From contig PGXO01000004.1 in the NCBI GenBank assembly GCA_002839185.1, forward strand, positions 1-64,000: DNA of 64,000 bases. The letters are read 5' to 3'. The notes below the pieces were generated by a model. It made no database searches, was not told the origin of the DNA, and saw only the letters and a list, made by a program, of their open reading frames with translations. A program made the position numbers and the translations under genes. Shown here one piece after another: positions 1,794 through 27,345 of this stretch. Each line of letters starts with the position of its first letter. Positions within the stretch are counted from its first letter, which is position 1. The DNA is from Synergistetes bacterium HGW-Synergistetes-1. GTDB taxonomy: Bacteria; Synergistota; Synergistia; Synergistales; Synergistaceae.

Positions 1794-3311
1794 TTATTCT
1801 TCCTTTGTTTTCTGTTCGTCTGTCGTCAGAGCCTTCCAGAATGAGACGCATGAGAAAAGCATGATGATACTGAAAGGAGCTGCTGCAGCAATAGATATTG
1901 TCTGCAGATTCTGAAGTCCGCCAGTCAGGAGAAGCACTACAGCAAGGGCTGCCATGAGTATGCCCCATATCCCCATTTTGCCCTTAGTTGGGTTAAGATT
2001 CCCTTCTTCAGAAAACATCGACAGAACAAAGGTTCCTGAATTTGCGGATGTAACAAAGAATGTCGTGATAAGCACCAGCATAACGACTGACATTATCATG
2101 CCCATCGGATAATGCTTGTACATCTCAAATATACCCACTGAGATATCTTTAAGAACTTCAGACGAGATATTGATTTGCTTCACAACTTCAAGGTAAAGGG
2201 CCGATGTGCCGAAAATAGCAAACCACATGAAACTGCCGAGTGCAGGTACAATCAGTACGCCGCAGACAAATTCGCGTATCGTGCGTCCCCGTGAGATCCT
2301 TGCTATAAACGAACCTACAAAGGGTGCCCATGAAATCCACCAGGCCCAGTAATATATCGTCCATCCATGGAGGAATGCCTCATACTCCCCGCCATAAGGT
2401 GCCATCATGAAGCTTTCTTTTATTACGCCACTGAGATAATCTCCTATGCCGGTCATGAAGGATCCTAGTATTGATATGCTTGGTCCGACAAGAAAGAGTG
2501 CCGACATCAGAAATAGGCATATATATAGATTAAAGTCAGCAACCTTTTTTATGCCCTTTTCTATACCAAGTACCGCTGAGCCTGTGTAAAGAATGGCAAG
2601 TCCAGCGATAATTAAAATCTGTATCAATGTGGTCTTAGGTATGCCGAATAACACGCTGAGGCCGCTGTTGATCTGCAGAGTCCCGAGACCGAGCGAGGTT
2701 GTTATCCCGCCAAGAGTTGCGAATACGGCAAATATGTCAACAGTTTTACCGAATTTTCCTCGGACTGCCTTTTCTCCGACTAGCGGAATGAATATGGAAC
2801 TGATAAGCCCGGGTGTGTTATGTCTGAACTGGTAATATGCAAGCGGCATCGCAATAACAGCGTAGCCTGCCCATGGATGCAGTCCCCAGTGCATGAAAGA
2901 AATCTGCATAGCGTCGCGGGCTGCCTGCACGGAACCCGGTTCGGCACCGAACGGGACCGAACCGAAGTGATACAGAGGCTCGGCAGCACCGTAAAATACA
3001 AGCCCTACTCCCATGCCTGCTGAAAAGAGCATTGCAAACCAGGACAAATTACTGTATTCAGGTCTGGAATCCGGTGCTCCTAAACGGACCTTTCCAAAGC
3101 GGCTCAGTCCGACAAATATGACAAATGCCACAAATATGTTCATTGTAAGCATATAGCCCCATCCGAAATACTTTGTGAGCACACCATTTACTGTTTTTGC
3201 AAAGCTGCCGAAAGTATCAGGCGAGATAAGCCCCCAAAGGACAATCATTATTGTTATAGCAATGGAGGTGAGGTAAACGGAATTGGCTTTTTTTTTCTTT
3301 GTTTCGATCAT
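1794..3311 (-). CDS. BCCT-family betaine/carnitine/choline-type transporter
   Basis: 505-aa integral membrane protein of the betaine-carnitine-choline transporter family, with about 12 predicted hydrophobic segments. Family hallmarks visible are GMGVGLVFYGAAEPLYHF (the glycine-rich substrate/sodium segment) and the tryptophan-rich signature WTIYYWAWWISWAPFVGSF followed by ARISRGRTIREF. BCCT proteins import quaternary amines such as glycine betaine. Placed between the selenoprotein B gene and trxA, it probably supplies the reductase with substrate, which favours betaine (or a related methylated amine) over glycine. Sequence alone does not settle sodium coupling or exact substrate. Confidence 0.93.
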   Translation of the reverse strand: MIETKKKKANSVYLTSIAITIMIVLWGLISPDTFGSFAKTVNGVLTKYFGWGYMLTMNIFVAFVIFVGLSRFGKVRLGAPDSRPEYSNLSWFAMLFSAGMGVGLVFYGAAEPLYHFGSVPFGAEPGSVQAARDAMQISFMHWGLHPWAGYAVIAMPLAYYQFRHNTPGLISSIFIPLVGEKAVRGKFGKTVDIFAVFATLGGITTSLGLGTLQINSGLSVLFGIPKTTLIQILIIAGLAILYTGSAVLGIEKGIKKVADFNLYICLFLMSALFLVGPSISILGSFMTGIGDYLSGVIKESFMMAPYGGEYEAFLHGWTIYYWAWWISWAPFVGSFIARISRGRTIREFVCGVLIVPALGSFMWFAIFGTSALYLEVVKQINISSEVLKDISVGIFEMYKHYPMGMIMSVVMLVLITTFFVTSANSGTFVLSMFSEEGNLNPTKGKMGIWGILMAALAVVLLLTGGLQNLQTISIAAAAPFSIIMLFSCVSFWKALTTDEQKTKEE

Positions 3312-3394: not shown

Positions 3395-4705
3395 TTAGAT
3401 CTTAACCTTGAACACTGTTGGTTCTGTGATCTCAGTGGCCAGCGAATCCAAAGCAACTCCTACACGATGGTAACGGAGAGCCCATTCTGCTTCTTTTGAA
3501 AGCTGTGGATCGCCAAGAGGGTATGGTACTGAAACTGTCGGGACCATTCTGTTTGATCCGACTGTTTTTGCTACATCGATAAGGTTGCACATAACAACAA
3601 CCGGGAATCCTGCACGTTCAATTTCTTTTGCCATCGTTGCACCGCAACGTGTACAAGTTCCTCAGGTGGAGGTTAGAACCACGGCATCAACTTTTGCTTG
3701 TTTCAGCTCTGCGGCGATCTCGCGTCCAAACTTTGCAGCGAAGTTCTGTGTTGTACCAGTTCCGACTGTGGTATAGAAGTAGTCATGCAGCTTAGCGAAT
3801 TTGCCTTCTTTTTCATAGGCGCGCATCGCGTCAAGAGGAACTCCTCTGTCGGGTACCTTACACATTGCTTCAGGATCAAATCCGGCGTGTATCGTCTTAT
3901 ATTCGCCTTCCGGGAGACAATCTTTGCCTGTGATATTGTATTTGCCCCATTTCTGTGCCGATGCACTCTGTATCCTGTCGGGGTTGTCAAATGGAACGAC
4001 TCCGCTTGATGTTACAATTGCTATTGTGCATTTGCTGAGGTCCTTGACTGCTGGTGCCGGTGGAATCCTGTCTGTTTTAGGTATTACGAGCTCTGTCTGG
4101 AATGGCTCTCCTGCTATCTTTTTGAGGAGCATATCCATAACGCGGTCTGCTGCCATGGTAGCATTTGGTGCCGGGATTTCACTGCGGATACCGCGCGGGA
4201 AATAGCCTTCCTCAGATGCGGGAAGAAGCTGTTCGCCTTTTGCGATCTTTTCGGCAAAAATGGCCATTGCGGTCAGGTTATCCTTCATAAACGTTGCTTT
4301 CCTGCCGCCTCTGAAGATGTAACAAAAACTCTTATACTCTTCAACACCAGGGTTTTCTTCGTTCATTGATGTAATGACGGGAACGTTGTAGCGTTCTGCG
4401 ACAGCCTTGCAGACAAGTCCGCATCCGACTCCATAGCGTCCTGCCATAAAAGCCGGACCAGCAAAGAAAATATCGAATTTCTTGCCGTCAAGCCATGCAA
4501 ATATCTCTTTCAGCGCATCCTCTGTATGATTGGTAACGTAGTTGTCTCCGACAACAAATGTATTGGTAACTTCTATATTCGGCATAATATTGTTCAGCAT
4601 CATGGAACAGCCAATCAGTTTATCGTGAAAAATTGGCTTGCAGTCTGCTGCGTCTTCACCGCCGACCTGTCCGAAGAATTGGTTGATGTAATGAATAGCT
4701 TTCAT
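3395..4705 (-). CDS. grdB: Glycine/sarcosine/betaine reductase component B selenoprotein subunit (GrdB/GrdF/GrdH family)
   Basis: Substrate-binding selenoprotein subunit of component B, 436 aa when the UGA at 3662-3664 (codon 348) is read as selenocysteine. The product begins MKAIHYINQFFGQVGGED and carries the hallmark VVLTSTUGTCTRCGATMAKE around the selenocysteine. Length and Sec position match the family (about 436 aa, Sec near 350). The start at 4705 was chosen over an upstream in-frame ATG because of the family N-terminus and an AGGAG site about 8 bases before it. The gene follows the grdE-type gene closely. GrdB (glycine), GrdF (sarcosine) and GrdH (betaine) are homologous, so the symbol is generic. 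The adjacent BCCT transporter argues for betaine. Confidence 0.93.
3635..3664 (-). promoter_or_regulatory. Selenocysteine UGA of component B and candidate SECIS hairpin
   Basis: UGA at 3662-3664. Twelve nucleotides downstream on the mRNA is a 6-bp perfect hairpin CGTTGC-GGT-GCAACG (plus-strand 3635-3649). A short upper stem with GU in the apical loop about 11-12 nt after the UGA is the layout known for bacterial SECIS elements that bind SelB. Confidence 0.65.
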
Positions 4706-4724
4706 ATTTTTCAGCTCCTGATTT

Positions 4725-6032
4725 TTAAAAATCTGCACAGGTTCTCTTCGAATACCCACTGATGTGGTTAGCACAGAACATCCCGTTGTTTTCCATTACG
4801 CATGAACCGTCGGGATTGATGCAGCCTTCCCATCCGCCGGAATTTCCGTCACGGGCAAGAGCTTCAAGCTCTCCGATGATCTTCATCGGAGGCATCTCAT
4901 AATACTGTGAAACGTTGCCTGTACTGACAAGCGCATCTGATGCGGGATTCATGGAGACCAGTGGCTGAGATGCTCCGTCGCGTCCTGTTGATTCGTCGGA
5001 AAGCCCTATCGTTTTAATACCGAGGCGCTCAAATTCAACCAGCATAGCTGTGTAGTCAACGTCAGGATTGCCGTATCCTTCCTCTGCGATAACCGCGGCC
5101 TGCGCACCGATGTTTACTGCTATCTGCCCTGCAATCTGTACACAGCGTACTTTTTCTTCCATCTTTGGATTGAGGGTTGATATTATAACACCAAGGAAGT
5201 TGATAGTTTTGCCGTGAGCGGCGTAGAGACGCTTGATCATCGGGTTTGTTGAGAACTCATATGTTGAGATCTTTGACGAAGATGGCATGAAGCTACCTGA
5301 AACCATGCAGCCGTCAAGGAGCTCATTGGGATGCATAAGCGTGGGCAGCATTCTGTTGCCGTCCCAGCCGTAGATCATAGTATTGTAGCCAAGTGCTTCC
5401 ATCTGTGTCTGAGGCTGAAGCACATACACAACACTGGGAAGGGCCTTCGTTTTTTCATCGCGTTCTGCAATTGGGGGGAGATCGTAAACGTCTATCCTGT
5501 CTGGTTCAAGACTGCGCACACACTCTGCTATATGCTCAGCGAGACGCATTGCGCCCCAGCGGATAGCGTGATTCTTTTTCTGCTGTTCTCTCTGTTCGAA
5601 CAGTTCGTCCGTGTCAGCGACAAGAACAAGGTTGACCATGTTTCCCCAGATGGTATGGTGCTGGAAGGGGCCTCCGATGTCAATGAGTCCGTCCTGAAAA
5701 CCACCCCAATGCTTGCCGACAGCAAGAAGCGTTACGTCTTCAAGTACATGAGTCCGTCCCATTCCTGCCTGTCCTAGCGGAGAAGTGACTCCCGGAAATG
5801 CTCCCTGACCGCCGCTGACCTTGCATCTGAATTCTACAGATTCCTTTACAGGGCAGAGACGCACCATATCGCCTGGATGGACGATTACGAGATCCGCATC
5901 TGTGATGTGGCTGTCTTCGCGGACAACATTCAAAGCTTCTTCCTTGTTGACATAGAGCACGCCGTTTAAGAGTTGTGTCTTGTCAGCAAAGACGATGTCT
6001 TTGACTTTGAAACAGCCGATTTCGAGTCTCAT
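4725..6032 (-). CDS. grdE: Glycine/sarcosine/betaine reductase component B proprotein (GrdE/GrdG/GrdI family)
   Basis: 435-aa proprotein that is cleaved to two subunits of component B, the C-terminal one carrying a pyruvoyl group that forms a Schiff base with the amino substrate. The cleavage region DGCMVSGSFMPSSSK is present with cysteine at residue 242, the position described for the GrdE cleavage site. Other family segments are EEGYGNPD, STGRDGASQPLV, IGELEALARDG and SGGWEG. The start has an AAGGAGG site 11 bases upstream and faces the long intergenic region, so this is the first gene of the operon. Order grdE-type, grdB-type, BCCT resembles betaine reductase loci. Substrate specificity cannot be read from sequence alone. 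Confidence 0.93.
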   Translation of the reverse strand: MRLEIGCFKVKDIVFADKTQLLNGVLYVNKEEALNVVREDSHITDADLVIVHPGDMVRLCPVKESVEFRCKVSGGQGAFPGVTSPLGQAGMGRTHVLEDVTLLAVGKHWGGFQDGLIDIGGPFQHHTIWGNMVNLVLVADTDELFEQREQQKKNHAIRWGAMRLAEHIAECVRSLEPDRIDVYDLPPIAERDEKTKALPSVVYVLQPQTQMEALGYNTMIYGWDGNRMLPTLMHPNELLDGCMVSGSFMPSSSKISTYEFSTNPMIKRLYAAHGKTINFLGVIISTLNPKMEEKVRCVQIAGQIAVNIGAQAAVIAEEGYGNPDVDYTAMLVEFERLGIKTIGLSDESTGRDGASQPLVSMNPASDALVSTGNVSQYYEMPPMKIIGELEALARDGNSGGWEGCINPDGSCVMENNGMFCANHISGYSKRTCADF

Positions 6033-22838: not shown

Positions 22839-22856
22839 AAAATTCCTTGCAACCGA

Positions 22857-22885
22857 TTGCATAAATTTTAAAAGTGATATATAAT
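22857..22885 (+). promoter_or_regulatory. Promoter of the pyr operon
   Basis: TTGCAT (22857-22862), 17-bp spacer, TATAAT (22880-22885, perfect). Transcription would begin near 22892, giving a leader of about 158 nt before pyrR. Confidence 0.65.
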
Positions 22886-22915
22886 ACCCGAAGTTCAACT
22901 TACGGGGGGAAACAG

Positions 22916-23008
22916 ATGATATCAAAGAGAGAGTCACTCATGTCACTTCGTTCTTACCTCGGAGATATTGATCCTCCGTTTCAAAGGGTCATTTTTAAGA
23001 TCGCCTGA
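22916..23008 (+). CDS. Candidate pyr leader peptide (30 aa)
   Basis: A short frame with ATG at 22916, GGGGGGA ribosome binding site 6 bases upstream, starting MISKRESLMSLRSYLG and ending in TGA at 23006-23008. The stop codon falls inside the loop of the intrinsic terminator that precedes pyrR. A run of five T (22992-22996) sits just before the hairpin. This is the geometry of UTP-sensitive coupled attenuation, as in the enterobacterial pyrBI leader: slow RNA polymerase at low UTP lets the ribosome reach and melt the terminator. Function is inferred from layout only. Confidence 0.5.
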   Translation: MISKRESLMSLRSYLGDIDPPFQRVIFKIA

Positions 23009-23026
23009 ATGGGCGGTCCTTTTTTT
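22999..23026 (+). terminator. Intrinsic terminator (attenuator) in front of pyrR
   Basis: Stem GATCGCC (22999-23005) with GGCGGTC (23012-23018), loop TGAATG, followed by CTTTTTTT. It ends 24 bp before the pyrR start codon, so it can only serve as a regulatory attenuator of the pyr operon. A smaller hairpin CGGAG/CTCCG (22960-22978) lies just upstream and could be part of a competing fold bound by PyrR. Confidence 0.8.
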
Positions 23027-23049
23027 ATTATAAAAAGGAGGGGTATAAA

Positions 23050-23604
23050 TTGACAGTTTTAAGAGAAAAGGCAAAGCTTATGAGTTCCGATGACCTCAAC
23101 AGGGTGATCAAGAGGATCGCACATGAAATGGTCGAGCAGAACAAGGGTACCGAAAACATGATCCTTGTAGGCATTCACAGAAGGGGCGTCTACCTTGCAC
23201 GCCGCCTGCAGAAGATCATCGAAGAGGTCGAGGGTACTAAGGTCCCATGCGGTGAGCTTGATATCACCTTGTACAGAGATGATCTGACCATGCTTTTCGA
23301 ACAGCCGATGGTCCACAGCACGAGGATGCCCCAGGACATCTCCGGTAAGAATATTTATCTTGTAGATGACGTTCTTTACACAGGAAGAACTGTGCGTGCT
23401 GCCCTTGAGGCCCTTGTAGACCTCGGGCGTCCCTCATCAGTGAAGCTGGCTGTAATAATCGACAGAGGCCACAGGGAACTTCCAATACACGCGGATATGT
23501 GCGGCAAGAATGTGCCGACATCCAAAAATGAAGTTATCGAAGTGAAAGTCACAGAGCTTGACGGAAAGGATGAGGTGGTGATCTGTGAACGCGATGCCCA
23601 GTGA
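23050..23604 (+). CDS. pyrR: PyrR bifunctional regulator / uracil phosphoribosyltransferase
   Basis: 184 aa. PyrR binds pyr leader RNA in response to UMP/UTP and has uracil phosphoribosyltransferase activity. The PRPP-binding loop VDDVLYTGRTVRAAL lies at about residues 105-119, and GIHRRGVYLA (41-50) is typical. Start codon is TTG with AAGGAGGGG 7 bases before. It is the first gene of the pyr operon, just after the leader terminator, and overlaps pyrB by 20 bp. Confidence 0.95.
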   Translation: MTVLREKAKLMSSDDLNRVIKRIAHEMVEQNKGTENMILVGIHRRGVYLARRLQKIIEEVEGTKVPCGELDITLYRDDLTMLFEQPMVHSTRMPQDISGKNIYLVDDVLYTGRTVRAALEALVDLGRPSSVKLAVIIDRGHRELPIHADMCGKNVPTSKNEVIEVKVTELDGKDEVVICERDAQ

Positions 23605-24541
23605 GGTCGGACAGATAGTTTGGCGTCACAGAAATGTGATAGATGTAGACTGTTTTACAAGGGAGGAACTATACTTCCTGCTCGATCAGGCGCGCCATAT
23701 GGAGAACGTAATGGACAGACCGATCAAAAAGGTCCCGGTCCTGCGCGGTAAGATGGCTGTCAATCTTTTCTTTGAAAATTCAACAAGGACAAGGGTCTCA
23801 TTTGAGCTTGCAGAGAAGATGCTTTCTGCAGATGTGGTCAACTGGTCTGTTTCAGGCTCAAGCCACGCTAAGGGCGAGACAATGAGGGACACAGCCTGGA
23901 CCCTTGAAGCAATGGGAGCGGATATAGTAGTAATGCGGCACGGAGCTGTAGGATCTGCACAGTATCTGGCTTCAAAGCTGAAAAGGGCAATAGTTCTGAA
24001 CGCGGGAGACGGGACCCACGCCCATCCCACACAGGCCCTGCTTGACCTTTACACTGCATGGAAACACCTGGGTAATCTGGAAGGCAAAAAAATCGCCCTT
24101 GTAGGTGACGTCCTCCACAGCCGTGTAGCAAGAAGCGACATAATAGCGTTTAAAACTATAGGGTGCGATGTGGTCCTCTCAGGGCCCCCTACAATGATGC
24201 CGAGAGAGATAAACTCACTGGGCTGCCGGTATGAGAAAGATCCCAAAAAAGCTGTTGAGAATGCTGACATGGTATACCTTCTCAGGATACAGAAAGAGAG
24301 ACAGCAGGATGGACTCTTCCCGTCTGTAGACGAATACCACCGCTGGTGGGGCGCCGACGATGATTTGATGAAGTATGCGAAACCCGGAGCTCTTGCGATG
24401 CATCCGGGACCGATCAACAGGGGCGTGGAAATTGCCTCCGAAGTTGCAGACGGACATCAGAGCGTAATACTGGAGCAGGTGCGTTCAGGAGTCGCGATAC
24501 GCATGGCTCTTCTCTATCTCTGTGGAGGAGGCGCAAGATAA
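23585..24541 (+). CDS. pyrB: Aspartate carbamoyltransferase catalytic subunit
   Basis: 318 aa. Condenses carbamoyl phosphate and aspartate, the first committed step of UMP synthesis. The carbamoyl-phosphate motif FENSTRTRVSFE is at residues 63-74, and HPTQALLDLYT, GDVLHSRVARS and HPGPINRGVEI are present. GTG at 23585 is chosen with an AGGTGG site upstream; an ATG at 23594 would shorten it by three residues. The pair pyrB-pyrC overlap by 1 bp. No pyrI regulatory subunit is visible. Confidence 0.96.
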   Translation: MNAMPSEVGQIVWRHRNVIDVDCFTREELYFLLDQARHMENVMDRPIKKVPVLRGKMAVNLFFENSTRTRVSFELAEKMLSADVVNWSVSGSSHAKGETMRDTAWTLEAMGADIVVMRHGAVGSAQYLASKLKRAIVLNAGDGTHAHPTQALLDLYTAWKHLGNLEGKKIALVGDVLHSRVARSDIIAFKTIGCDVVLSGPPTMMPREINSLGCRYEKDPKKAVENADMVYLLRIQKERQQDGLFPSVDEYHRWWGADDDLMKYAKPGALAMHPGPINRGVEIASEVADGHQSVILEQVRSGVAIRMALLYLCGGGAR

Positions 24542-25845
24542 TGGGAAAGATATTGTTCACGGACTTTAAAATATTTAACGGCACAGAATTTATTGAGGGC
24601 AGGAAAGTGCTGGTCGAGGACGGAAAGATCTCGAAAGTTGGCAAAGATCTTGACAGCAGTGACGCAGAGGTTATCGATGGTTACGGAAAGATCCTCTCAC
24701 CTGGCTTTGTTGACCTTCATGCCCATTTCAGGGATCCGGGCGGTGAGTGGAACGAGGATATTGGTTCCGGAGCCAGGGCGGGAGCAGCCGGTGGATTTAC
24801 GACACTTATTGCCATGCCCAATACCAAACCTGCAATTTCAGAGCCTTCTCTTGTAGAATATGTGCTGAGCCACGGGAAAGCAGCCGGTGCGTCAAGGATA
24901 CTTCCATCCGGATGTGTCAGTAAAAACAGGGAAGGCAAGGAGATGGCAGAACTTCTCAAGATGGCTGAGGCAGGAGCTGTCTTTTTCACAGATGACGGAG
25001 CCCCTATAGCCACAAGTTCCCTTTTCCGCCTCGCATTGATGTACACAGGAAAAGATCAGCCTAGAATAATGGAGCATCCGGAAGAGATCAGCCTTTTCAA
25101 GGGCGGTCAGGTGCATGAGGGAAAGGTCAGTGCGCTGAGCGGCCTCAAGGGTATCCCCGCAGCATCAGAGGAGATAGATGTGGCAAGGGGAATAGCTCTT
25201 GCCAGGGAGACCGGGGGAAGAGTCCACTTTACACACCTGAGCAGTGCGGGAGCCTTGGGACTTATAAGGCAGGCCAAGAAGGAAGGGTTGGATGTCACAT
25301 GTGATACCACCTTCCACCATTTGACCCTTAATGAAAACGCAGTTATCAACAGCGGTTATAACTCAAGATACAAAGTGAATCCTCCGCTTAGGAGCATAGG
25401 AGACCAGGCTGCTCTGTGGGAGGGGATGCTAGACGGAACGATAGATGCCATAGTGACAGACCACGCTCCATGGCACATGGATGAGAAAGATGAGCCATTC
25501 CAGGATGCACCGTTTGGGATAGCGTCACTTGAATGCGCTGCCGCTGTACTGATAGACTTTAAGAACAAGAACTACCCTGATGTACCGCTTGAGCTGATCC
25601 TGAAACAAATGACGAGCTCCCCGGCATCCCTCCTTCCTGAAAAGTGGCAGTCATTGGGCAGGATAGAAGAAGGGGCCATCGCGGACATAACGGTCATAGA
25701 TATGGAAAGGACCAGGATCGTTGACTGCTCTGAATGGTTCAGCAAGGCAAGATGCTGCCCATGGGAAGGAATTGCCCTGACCGGCTGGCCTGTAATTACT
25801 TTTCTAGAAGGCAGGAAGATTTGGCAGGATAACGAAGATCTTTAG
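24541..25845 (+). CDS. pyrC: Dihydroorotase
   Basis: 434 aa zinc amidohydrolase that cyclises carbamoyl aspartate. Metal ligands His60 and His62 occur in DLHAHFRDPG; further metal-site and substrate segments are THLSSAGAL, DTTFHHLTLN and DHAPWHMDEK. The length and motifs place it in the long (class I) bacterial type found with pyrB in Gram-positives. It overlaps pyrB by 1 bp (TAATG). Confidence 0.95.
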   Translation: MGKILFTDFKIFNGTEFIEGRKVLVEDGKISKVGKDLDSSDAEVIDGYGKILSPGFVDLHAHFRDPGGEWNEDIGSGARAGAAGGFTTLIAMPNTKPAISEPSLVEYVLSHGKAAGASRILPSGCVSKNREGKEMAELLKMAEAGAVFFTDDGAPIATSSLFRLALMYTGKDQPRIMEHPEEISLFKGGQVHEGKVSALSGLKGIPAASEEIDVARGIALARETGGRVHFTHLSSAGALGLIRQAKKEGLDVTCDTTFHHLTLNENAVINSGYNSRYKVNPPLRSIGDQAALWEGMLDGTIDAIVTDHAPWHMDEKDEPFQDAPFGIASLECAAAVLIDFKNKNYPDVPLELILKQMTSSPASLLPEKWQSLGRIEEGAIADITVIDMERTRIVDCSEWFSKARCCPWEGIALTGWPVITFLEGRKIWQDNEDL

Positions 25846-26038: not shown

Positions 26039-26743
26039 TTGAATAATAAAAAATGTGAATTGATCGCAGCGGTGGATCTGCCGACTCTGGACGCAGCCAG
26101 GGAGTTTCTTGAGAAGCTCGATAAAGCGACCCCTTATGTAAAGATAGGACCCAGACTTTACGCAATGGGGGGAGCTCCGTTCATCGGTGAAATAGTTAAA
26201 AAAGGATACAGCCTTTTTCTTGACCTTAAACTGCATGACATACCCAACACTGTAGCATCAGCAGTTGAACCTCTTTCTGAGATGGGACTGTGGGCTTTGA
26301 CCATCCACACGTCAGGCGGACGTGAAATGATGTCTCGGTCCGTCGCAATGAGGGATAAGACAGGAAGCAGGATGAACATCTTTGGGATCACGGTTCTGAC
26401 AAGCCTCGGAGGAGACCTTTGGAGCGAAGTGCACCCGGGATCTGACCTTGACCGATCACTTGAAGCAAGAGCGCTTGCAGCCGCAAGTGCAGGACTTGAC
26501 GGCATAGTCTGTTCGCCGCTGGATCTTTCGCTTCTAAGCGGAAAAGCTGAAAAACTTGCAAGAGTTGTCCCTGGTATCAGGAGAATAAGAGCATCGACAG
26601 AGGATCAGACAAGGGTGGCAACTGCAAAGGAAGCAGCTGCAGCAGGGGCTTCATATGTCGTTGTTGGAAGGCCGATACTTGAAGCAGCTGATCCTATCAG
26701 TGAAGTCAGAAGTATACTTAAGGAAATATCGGAGGTGCAGTGA
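26039..26743 (+). CDS. pyrF: Orotidine 5'-phosphate decarboxylase
   Basis: 234 aa. Decarboxylates OMP to UMP. The catalytic tetrad region DLKLHDIPNTV is at residues 62-72 (Asp62, Lys64, Asp67), and the phosphate-binding VVGRPI segment is near the C-terminus. TTG start with GGAGGTG upstream. A 193-bp gap separates it from pyrC, so a second control point may exist there, although no clear promoter was found. It overlaps pyrE by 1 bp. Confidence 0.95.
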   Translation: MNNKKCELIAAVDLPTLDAAREFLEKLDKATPYVKIGPRLYAMGGAPFIGEIVKKGYSLFLDLKLHDIPNTVASAVEPLSEMGLWALTIHTSGGREMMSRSVAMRDKTGSRMNIFGITVLTSLGGDLWSEVHPGSDLDRSLEARALAAASAGLDGIVCSPLDLSLLSGKAEKLARVVPGIRRIRASTEDQTRVATAKEAAAAGASYVVVGRPILEAADPISEVRSILKEISEVQ

Positions 26744-27345
26744 TGAGGAAAGACTTTGTAAAAACAGATGACAAGGAAGTGGCCGCCAGGATCATGGAAA
26801 TGATGAAAGAGAGCGGGGCCCACCTCGAAGGACATTTCAAACTGACCTCCGGACTTCACAGCGGTCATTACATACAGTGTGCCCTTATGCTCCGTTTCCC
26901 TGAGTTTGCAGCATACGCGGGAGAAATGATCGCAGAGCGGATAGCGCACAAAAAACCCGATATCATCCTTTCTCCTGCGTTGGGCGGACTCATCATAGGC
27001 CACGAAGTTGCCAGTGCGCTTGGAGTGCCCTTTATCTTCTGCGAAAGGCAGGAGGGGGTGATGAGGCTCAGAAGGTTTCCCCACCCGGGCAAAGTGCGTT
27101 TCGCGCTCATCGAAGATGTGGTTACCACAGGCAAGTCATCACGGGAAACAGCGCAGATACTTGCCGAAGGAGGAGCGGAATGGGTCTCTTCCGCTTCAAT
27201 AATCGACAGGCGTGCAAATGATACTTATAAGGACTGGGACCTTGTTTCCCTCTGGAAACTAAGTTTTCCTCTTTATGAAGAGCAGAGCTGTCCTCTGTGC
27301 AAAGAGGGCCTGCCACTTGTAAAGCCGGGGAGCCGTCCGGGCTGA
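26743..27345 (+). CDS. pyrE: Orotate phosphoribosyltransferase
   Basis: 200 aa. Joins orotate to PRPP to give OMP. The PRPP-binding motif is ALIEDVVTTGKSSRE (about residues 121-135) and the flexible-loop segment EVASALGVPFIFCERQEG precedes it. ATG at 26743 overlaps the pyrF stop; an in-frame GTG three bases earlier is also possible. The C-terminal tail includes a CPLCKEG pair that is not a usual feature. Its stop overlaps the next gene by 1 bp. Confidence 0.93.
   Translation: MRKDFVKTDDKEVAARIMEMMKESGAHLEGHFKLTSGLHSGHYIQCALMLRFPEFAAYAGEMIAERIAHKKPDIILSPALGGLIIGHEVASALGVPFIFCERQEGVMRLRRFPHPGKVRFALIEDVVTTGKSSRETAQILAEGGAEWVSSASIIDRRANDTYKDWDLVSLWKLSFPLYEEQSCPLCKEGLPLVKPGSRPG

What the first reader, a model, noticed from the sequence alone, without database searches (positions are those of the whole stretch)
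22892..23049. pyr leader: 30-codon peptide ending in the loop of an intrinsic terminator
Promoter (TATAAT at 22880), ribosome binding site, 30-codon frame, five-T tract just before the stem, a stop codon in the hairpin loop, then a T-run and pyrR. This is the architecture of ribosome-coupled, UTP-sensitive attenuation, known for enterobacterial pyrBI. Here it precedes pyrR, whose product normally acts on leader RNA. Two mechanisms may be layered, or the peptide may replace the classical PyrR antiterminator fold.
Basis: partly seen in the sequence, partly recalled or inferred. Interest (0 to 1): 0.7.

Follow-up and report, generated by a model that had tools for sequence, protein, structure and literature searches.

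The report
Ribosome-coupled attenuator upstream of pyrR
In this anaerobic bacterium (phylum Synergistota) the genes for making pyrimidines are most likely switched by a ribosome translating a tiny throw-away peptide into a transcription stop signal, a trick best known from E. coli, and in this lineage it appears to have replaced the usual switch in which the PyrR protein grips the RNA.

Summary
In detail: promoter, ribosome-binding site, 30-codon frame, U5 tract, intrinsic terminator with the stop codon at its apex, then pyrR-pyrB-pyrC and pyrF-pyrE. In this genome alone the open frame is not significant (39% of shuffles stay open). Across the phylum it is. In 43 leaders of this type the best-SD start, chosen without regard to frame, opens a frame into the terminator in 42; the other two frames hold 33 and 41 stops against 1. 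Amino acids are not conserved (dN about equal to dS), while the stop sits at or inside the hairpin. U is enriched just before the hairpin in this family (z 5.5). No PyrR-binding loop and no antiterminator are found, although both are clear in other Synergistota. Some relatives carry a PyrR-binding loop whose 3' arm overlaps or abuts the leader's ribosome-binding site, an intermediate state. Best explanation: UTP-sensitive, ribosome-coupled attenuation like E. coli pyrBI, left after the PyrR site was lost from an ancestor resembling the Thermus pyr leader. New variant of a known kind; expression was not tested.

The parts
22848..22861 (.). LacI-type palindromic operator TGCAACCGATTGCA, overlapping the -35 box
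   Evidence: one of two exact sites in the genome; conserved before pyrR across much of the phylum
22857..22862 (+). -35 box TTGCAT
   Evidence: sequence; 17 nt before TATAAT
22880..22885 (+). -10 box TATAAT
   Evidence: sequence; also present in relatives
22904..22909 (+). leader ribosome-binding site GGGGGG
   Evidence: best score in the leader for a start codon (anti-SD pairing -9.7 kcal/mol)
22916..23008 (+). 30-codon leader peptide with stop codon UGA 23006-23008
22992..22996 (+). U5 tract just before the hairpin, candidate UTP-sensitive pause region
   Evidence: U enrichment before the stem in 13 leaders of the family, z 5.5
22999..23026 (+). intrinsic terminator (attenuator): stem-loop 22999-23018, T7 23020-23026
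23050..23604 (+). pyrR (TTG start), first gene of the operon
   Evidence: closest solved structure is Thermus PyrR 1UFR
23585..24541 (+). pyrB, aspartate carbamoyltransferase
   Evidence: identified from sequence, overlaps the end of pyrR
24541..25845 (+). pyrC, dihydroorotase
   Evidence: identified from sequence
26039..26743 (+). pyrF, orotidine-5'-phosphate decarboxylase
   Evidence: identified from sequence
26740..27345 (+). pyrE, orotate phosphoribosyltransferase
   Evidence: identified from sequence

Best explanation
It is a UTP-sensitive, ribosome-coupled transcription attenuator. Transcription starts near 22892. A ribosome loads on the strong SD and follows RNA polymerase along the 30-codon leader. 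When UTP is low, polymerase slows in the U-rich stretch before the hairpin, the ribosome catches up, and by terminating at the UGA it covers the hairpin, so no terminator forms and pyrR-pyrB-pyrC (probably on through pyrF-pyrE) is transcribed. When UTP is high, polymerase outruns the ribosome, the hairpin forms and transcription stops. The peptide itself has no function: only start, open frame and stop position matter. PyrR is not needed and is probably kept for uracil salvage. A LacI-family repressor acting at the operator over the -35 box gives a second, promoter-level layer. Shown from sequence: all parts, frame selection across lineages, absence of a recognisable PyrR loop and of an antiterminator. 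Inferred: pausing, UTP response, repression by the LacI-type protein, and PyrR's present role.
For: Frame: 42 of 43 operator-positive, loop-free leaders with a terminator are open from the best-SD start to the hairpin; stops 1 versus 33 and 41 in the other frames; 18.5 open expected. One leader per genus: 18 of 19 open, P = 4e-6; 13 distinct leaders of this family all open, P = 9e-7. Stop position: in the 15 f1 leaders scored the stop lies between -5 and +16 nt of the hairpin start in 13, the other two read through it. In E. coli, moving a stop codon from 28 to 5 bp before a terminator cut termination from about 90% to under 10% (PMC4824070). Amino acids not conserved: L003 versus L005 dN 0.216, dS 0.242. 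U enrichment in the 20 nt before the stem, 129 versus 92.9 expected, z 5.5. No PyrR loop: leader-only loci score at most 12.9 bits against 36-52 bits for loop-bearing loci; Rfam RF00515 hits only the latter, even at E up to 5. Upstream sequence complementary to the terminator 5' arm is found in the classical PyrR leaders (mean z -1.19, n 24) but not here (+0.56, n 13). Same plan as E. coli pyrL, which also has a U-rich stretch and reads through its attenuator.
Against: No expression data of any kind. The U enrichment is clear only in this family: partial in f6 g29/33/36, absent in f3, f10 and f6 g30, so the UTP-sensing step is weaker than the ribosome-coupling step. The window PyrR still has the positions equivalent to B. 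subtilis H22, R141 and K152, so RNA binding to some other site is not excluded. The single-locus frame is not significant by itself.
Confidence: 0.7

Rival explanations
1. Layered, Thermus-like control: PyrR with UMP binds the leader RNA at a diverged site near the leader ribosome-binding site, blocks its translation, and so lets the terminator form.
For: Relatives in f2, f4, g2 and g22 carry a PyrR-binding loop whose 3' arm overlaps or directly precedes the leader SD. The PyrR tree places the f4 form near the base of the clade that holds the window. Window PyrR keeps several RNA-contact positions.
Against: No loop detected here by Rfam or by a model built from this phylum. The position of B. 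subtilis R146 is R or K in 33 of 33 classical PyrRs and in 0 of 55 operator-positive loop-free ones, H in the window.
Confidence: 0.13
2. The terminator only sets a fixed basal level and the frame is incidental; real control is by the LacI-family repressor at the operator.
For: The operator and regulator co-occur strongly: 65 of 71 operator-bearing genomes have the regulator against 10 of 117 others. Two genera (g20, part of g21) keep the operator but have no terminator.
Against: Frame selection across 19 genera is not expected of an incidental frame.
Confidence: 0.1
3. The leader senses charged tRNA or general translation speed through particular codons, as in amino-acid operon leaders.
For: Leader peptides exist and some (f3, f10) are rich in Lys and Arg without a U tract.
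Against: No codon run or conserved residue in this family; dN is about dS; no alternative antiterminator pairing, which tRNA-sensing attenuators need.
Confidence: 0.05
4. Classical PyrR attenuation with antiterminator and PyrR-stabilised anti-antiterminator.
For: The next gene is pyrR, and 34 leaders in other Synergistota are of this class.
Against: Loop and antiterminator both tested and absent here.
Confidence: 0.02

Closest known systems
E. coli pyrBI leader (pyrL), UTP-sensitive ribosome-coupled attenuation
   Same: Leader ORF with SD, U-rich stretch before an intrinsic terminator, ORF reaching into or through the terminator, pyrimidine genes downstream; coupling required to prevent the terminator (PMC5021804, citing Roland et al. 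1988).
   Different: There is no pyrR in the E. coli operon and its leader (44 codons) reads through to just before pyrB. Here the leader (30 codons) stops at the hairpin apex, the first gene is pyrR, and a LacI-type operator covers the -35 box.
Thermus strain ZO5 pyrR-pyrB-bbc-pyrC leader (Van de Casteele et al. 1997, J Bacteriol; from memory, not held)
   Same: Proposed ribosome-dependent attenuation without antiterminator, upstream of pyrR. Closest solved PyrR is Thermus 1UFR. Synergistota f2, f4, g2 and g22, with a PyrR loop at the leader SD, look like a related design.
   Different: In the window the PyrR-binding loop is gone, so the leader appears to work without PyrR. I could not test the Thermus sequence itself here.
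Bacillus-type PyrR attenuation (Rfam RF00515)
   Same: pyrR first in the operon and an intrinsic terminator; present in other Synergistota (34 leaders).
   Different: No binding loop, no antiterminator, leader ORF instead.
LacI-family repressors of nucleotide genes (PurR, CytR)
   Same: Palindromic operator with central CG over the promoter; PF00356 regulator.
   Different: A pyrimidine regulon (pyr, uracil permease-like gene, the regulator itself, perhaps carAB) with a regulator of only about 195 aa in this family. The LacI-family survey PMC4052901 does not mention Synergistota, and in the passages read the only pyrimidine-synthesis regulator is PurR.

Membership tests
UTP-sensitive ribosome-coupled attenuator (pyrBI type) | leader ORF with ribosome-binding site, in frame into the attenuator | tested here: met
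UTP-sensitive ribosome-coupled attenuator (pyrBI type) | intrinsic terminator before the first structural gene, within reach of the terminating ribosome | tested here: met
UTP-sensitive ribosome-coupled attenuator (pyrBI type) | U-rich pause region upstream of the attenuator | tested here: met
   U5 here and z 5.5 in the family; not in f3, f10 or f6 g30
UTP-sensitive ribosome-coupled attenuator (pyrBI type) | no alternative antiterminator structure | tested here: met
UTP-sensitive ribosome-coupled attenuator (pyrBI type) | read-through rises when UTP is low and depends on leader translation | not testable with these tools
   needs reporter fusions
PyrR-dependent attenuator (RF00515) | PyrR-binding loop in the leader | tested here: not met
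PyrR-dependent attenuator (RF00515) | antiterminator complementary to the terminator 5' arm | tested here: not met
Thermus-type pyrR leader | ribosome-dependent leader ORF before pyrR, no antiterminator | tested here: met
   (sequence signs only); the definition is from memory
Thermus-type pyrR leader | PyrR acts on the leader RNA | tested here: inconclusive
   no loop, but PyrR keeps some RNA-contact positions; binding not testable
LacI-family regulator controlling the pyr promoter | PF00356 DNA-binding domain in the regulator, operator at the target and at its own promoter, co-occurrence | tested here: met
LacI-family regulator controlling the pyr promoter | the regulator binds this operator and represses pyr | not testable with these tools
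   needs gel shift and a deletion

The most novel reading that the evidence does not exclude
Synergistota preserve an evolutionary series in which PyrR's RNA switch was handed over to the ribosome: classical PyrR antiterminator, PyrR loop at a leader ribosome-binding site, and leader peptide alone with PyrR free to lose RNA binding. The whole is overlaid by a pyrimidine-specific, half-size LacI-family repressor that regulates itself.
Probability: 0.5. Interest if true: 0.72.

Novelty: new variant of a known kind. Interest (0 to 1): 0.58.

Why it matters
If right, UTP sensing by polymerase-ribosome coupling is not an enterobacterial speciality. It occurs in a distant phylum, in front of the gene for the very protein that does the job elsewhere. 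The phylum offers living intermediates that show how a protein-RNA switch can be replaced by a ribosome-based one, with matching changes in PyrR residues. It also points to an apparently undescribed LacI-family pyrimidine regulon, and it means a pyrR gene first in a pyr operon cannot be taken as proof of PyrR-RNA control.

Tried and rejected
A classical PyrR fold was searched for with Rfam at gathering and relaxed thresholds, then with a covariance model from 22 loops of this phylum; absent here. An alternative antiterminator pairing with either arm of the terminator: none beyond shuffles in this family. Codon-specific sensing: no recurring codon run. Minimum free energy of the whole leader: not unusual (z -0.39), so not used as evidence. 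A leader peptide plus terminator before carA or the uracil permease of the same genome: none seen by eye. Papers on the Thermus ZO5 leader and on PyrR RNA-contact residues were not found in the held library, so those points rest on my own knowledge.

Full report
The genome (2.17 Mb) belongs to the Synergistota: the closest named relatives are Synergistaceae metagenome assemblies. pyrR was found in 121 of 188 genomes of the phylum, and I collected and oriented 126 upstream regions.

Is the leader frame real? In the window alone it cannot be told: 39% of shuffles of the leader body stay open. Across lineages, yes. For every leader with a terminator I chose the start codon by anti-SD pairing energy and start-codon type, blind to frame. 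Among 43 leaders with the LacI-type operator and without a PyrR loop, frame 0 is open to the hairpin in 42, with 1 stop in total against 33 and 41 in frames +1 and +2, and 18.5 open expected from dinucleotide shuffles. With one leader per genus, 18 of 19 are open, stops 1/10/17, P = 4e-6; 13 distinct leaders of the window's family are all open, P = 9e-7. The P-values treat lineages as independent, which is only approximately true. The peptides do not resemble each other between genera, and within the genus a pair aligned without gaps gives dN 0.216 and dS 0.242. What is kept is frame and end point: in the 15 leaders of this family the stop lies 5 nt before to 16 nt after the start of the hairpin in 13, and in 2 the frame reads through; in other families it often reads through, as E. 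coli pyrL does. Measurements in E. coli show that a terminator within a few base pairs of a stop codon is nearly silenced by the terminating ribosome (PMC4824070).

Is it UTP-sensing? The 20 nt before the stem are enriched in U in this family (129 against 92.9 expected, z 5.5), partly so in f6 g29/33/36, and not in f3, f10 or f6 g30. So the pause signal fits pyrBI here, but the other families may sense something else or sense UTP otherwise.

Is PyrR involved? Rfam's PyrR element matches loci of other Synergistota and none of the leader-only loci up to E = 5. A covariance model from 22 loops of this phylum gives 36-52 bits for loop-bearing leaders and at most 12.9 bits for the rest. Sequence complementary to the terminator's 5' arm, the mark of an antiterminator, is present in the classical loop-bearing leaders (mean z -1.19) and absent from this family (+0.56), the other leader-only families (-0.22) and the loop-plus-leader group (0.06). 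In the loop-plus-leader group (f2, f4, g2, g22) the AAGG of the loop's 3' arm runs into, or lies a few bases from, the SD of the leader, so PyrR binding could shut off leader translation. That is how I understand the Thermus ZO5 proposal. The PyrR tree puts all classical loops in one clade (25 rows, 99/96); in the other clade the f4 loop-plus-leader form branches early and the leader-only forms are nested with f2 and g2 (the g22 proteins were not in the tree). This suggests that the loop was lost, probably more than once, though several deep forks are weakly supported and rooting is by midpoint. PyrR residues agree in part: the position of B. subtilis R146 is R/K in 33/33 classical and 0/55 operator-positive loop-free proteins; K152 and N153 are kept in 41/41 loop-bearing ones but not generally elsewhere; the window protein has lost R146, R27 and T18 but keeps H22, R141, K152, N153. 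The role of these residues in RNA binding is from my own knowledge, and the contrast is confounded with phylogeny.

The palindrome TGCAACCGATTGCA (22848-22861) covers the -35 box. In this genome it occurs exactly twice, here and before a uracil permease-like gene, and with one mismatch beside the only PF00356 (LacI) gene and far upstream of carA. In the phylum 65 of 71 genomes with an exact site have an ortholog of that regulator, against 10 of 117 without (odds ratio 116, P = 3e-32, again ignoring relatedness). Most close relatives keep an operator-like site about 37-43 nt upstream of the start of the regulator gene. The regulator is about 195 aa in this family and mostly about 270-290 aa in others. 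Its effector is unknown.

Verdict: a ribosome-coupled attenuator, most likely UTP-sensitive, that has replaced PyrR-RNA control in this lineage, under a LacI-type promoter layer. Nothing here was tested by experiment.

Noticed in passing
window 22848-22861; G000:C12:40567-41151; G000:C11:33243; G000:C5:60166: LacI-type operator and its probable cognate regulator: a pyrimidine regulon (pyr operon, uracil permease-like gene, the regulator itself, perhaps carAB) apparently undescribed.
   Followed up: yes
L159-L178 versus L180-L188: The LacI-family regulator is only about 190-195 aa in the window's part of family f1 (DNA-binding domain plus part of the effector domain) and mostly about 270-290 aa in other families, shorter than usual LacI proteins; the short form occurs in genera that have the loop-free leaders.
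   Followed up: partly
L027, L034, L036: Close relatives keep operator and promoter before pyrR but have no terminator: the attenuator has been lost.
   Followed up: partly
L048, L053, L055 versus L065, L071, L072: Genus g30 has two pyrR copies per genome, only one behind an operator and a leader with terminator.
   Followed up: no
L066, L067, L070, L074, L077, L078, L086: In genus g49 (family f7) the operator lies right after a gene whose end looks like dihydroorotase, just before pyrR, with no attenuator.
   Followed up: no
L102, L112, L052, L056 and other f3/f10 leaders: Leader frames rich in Lys/Arg and without a U tract before the hairpin; their signal may not be UTP pausing.
   Followed up: partly
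window 3624-3661 (-), ORF 3395-4774 (-): Bacterial SECIS element (RF01990) inside a selenoprotein gene resembling a glycine/betaine reductase subunit (TSTUGTCT...), next to a BCCT-type transporter-like ORF 1794-3311 (-).
   Followed up: partly
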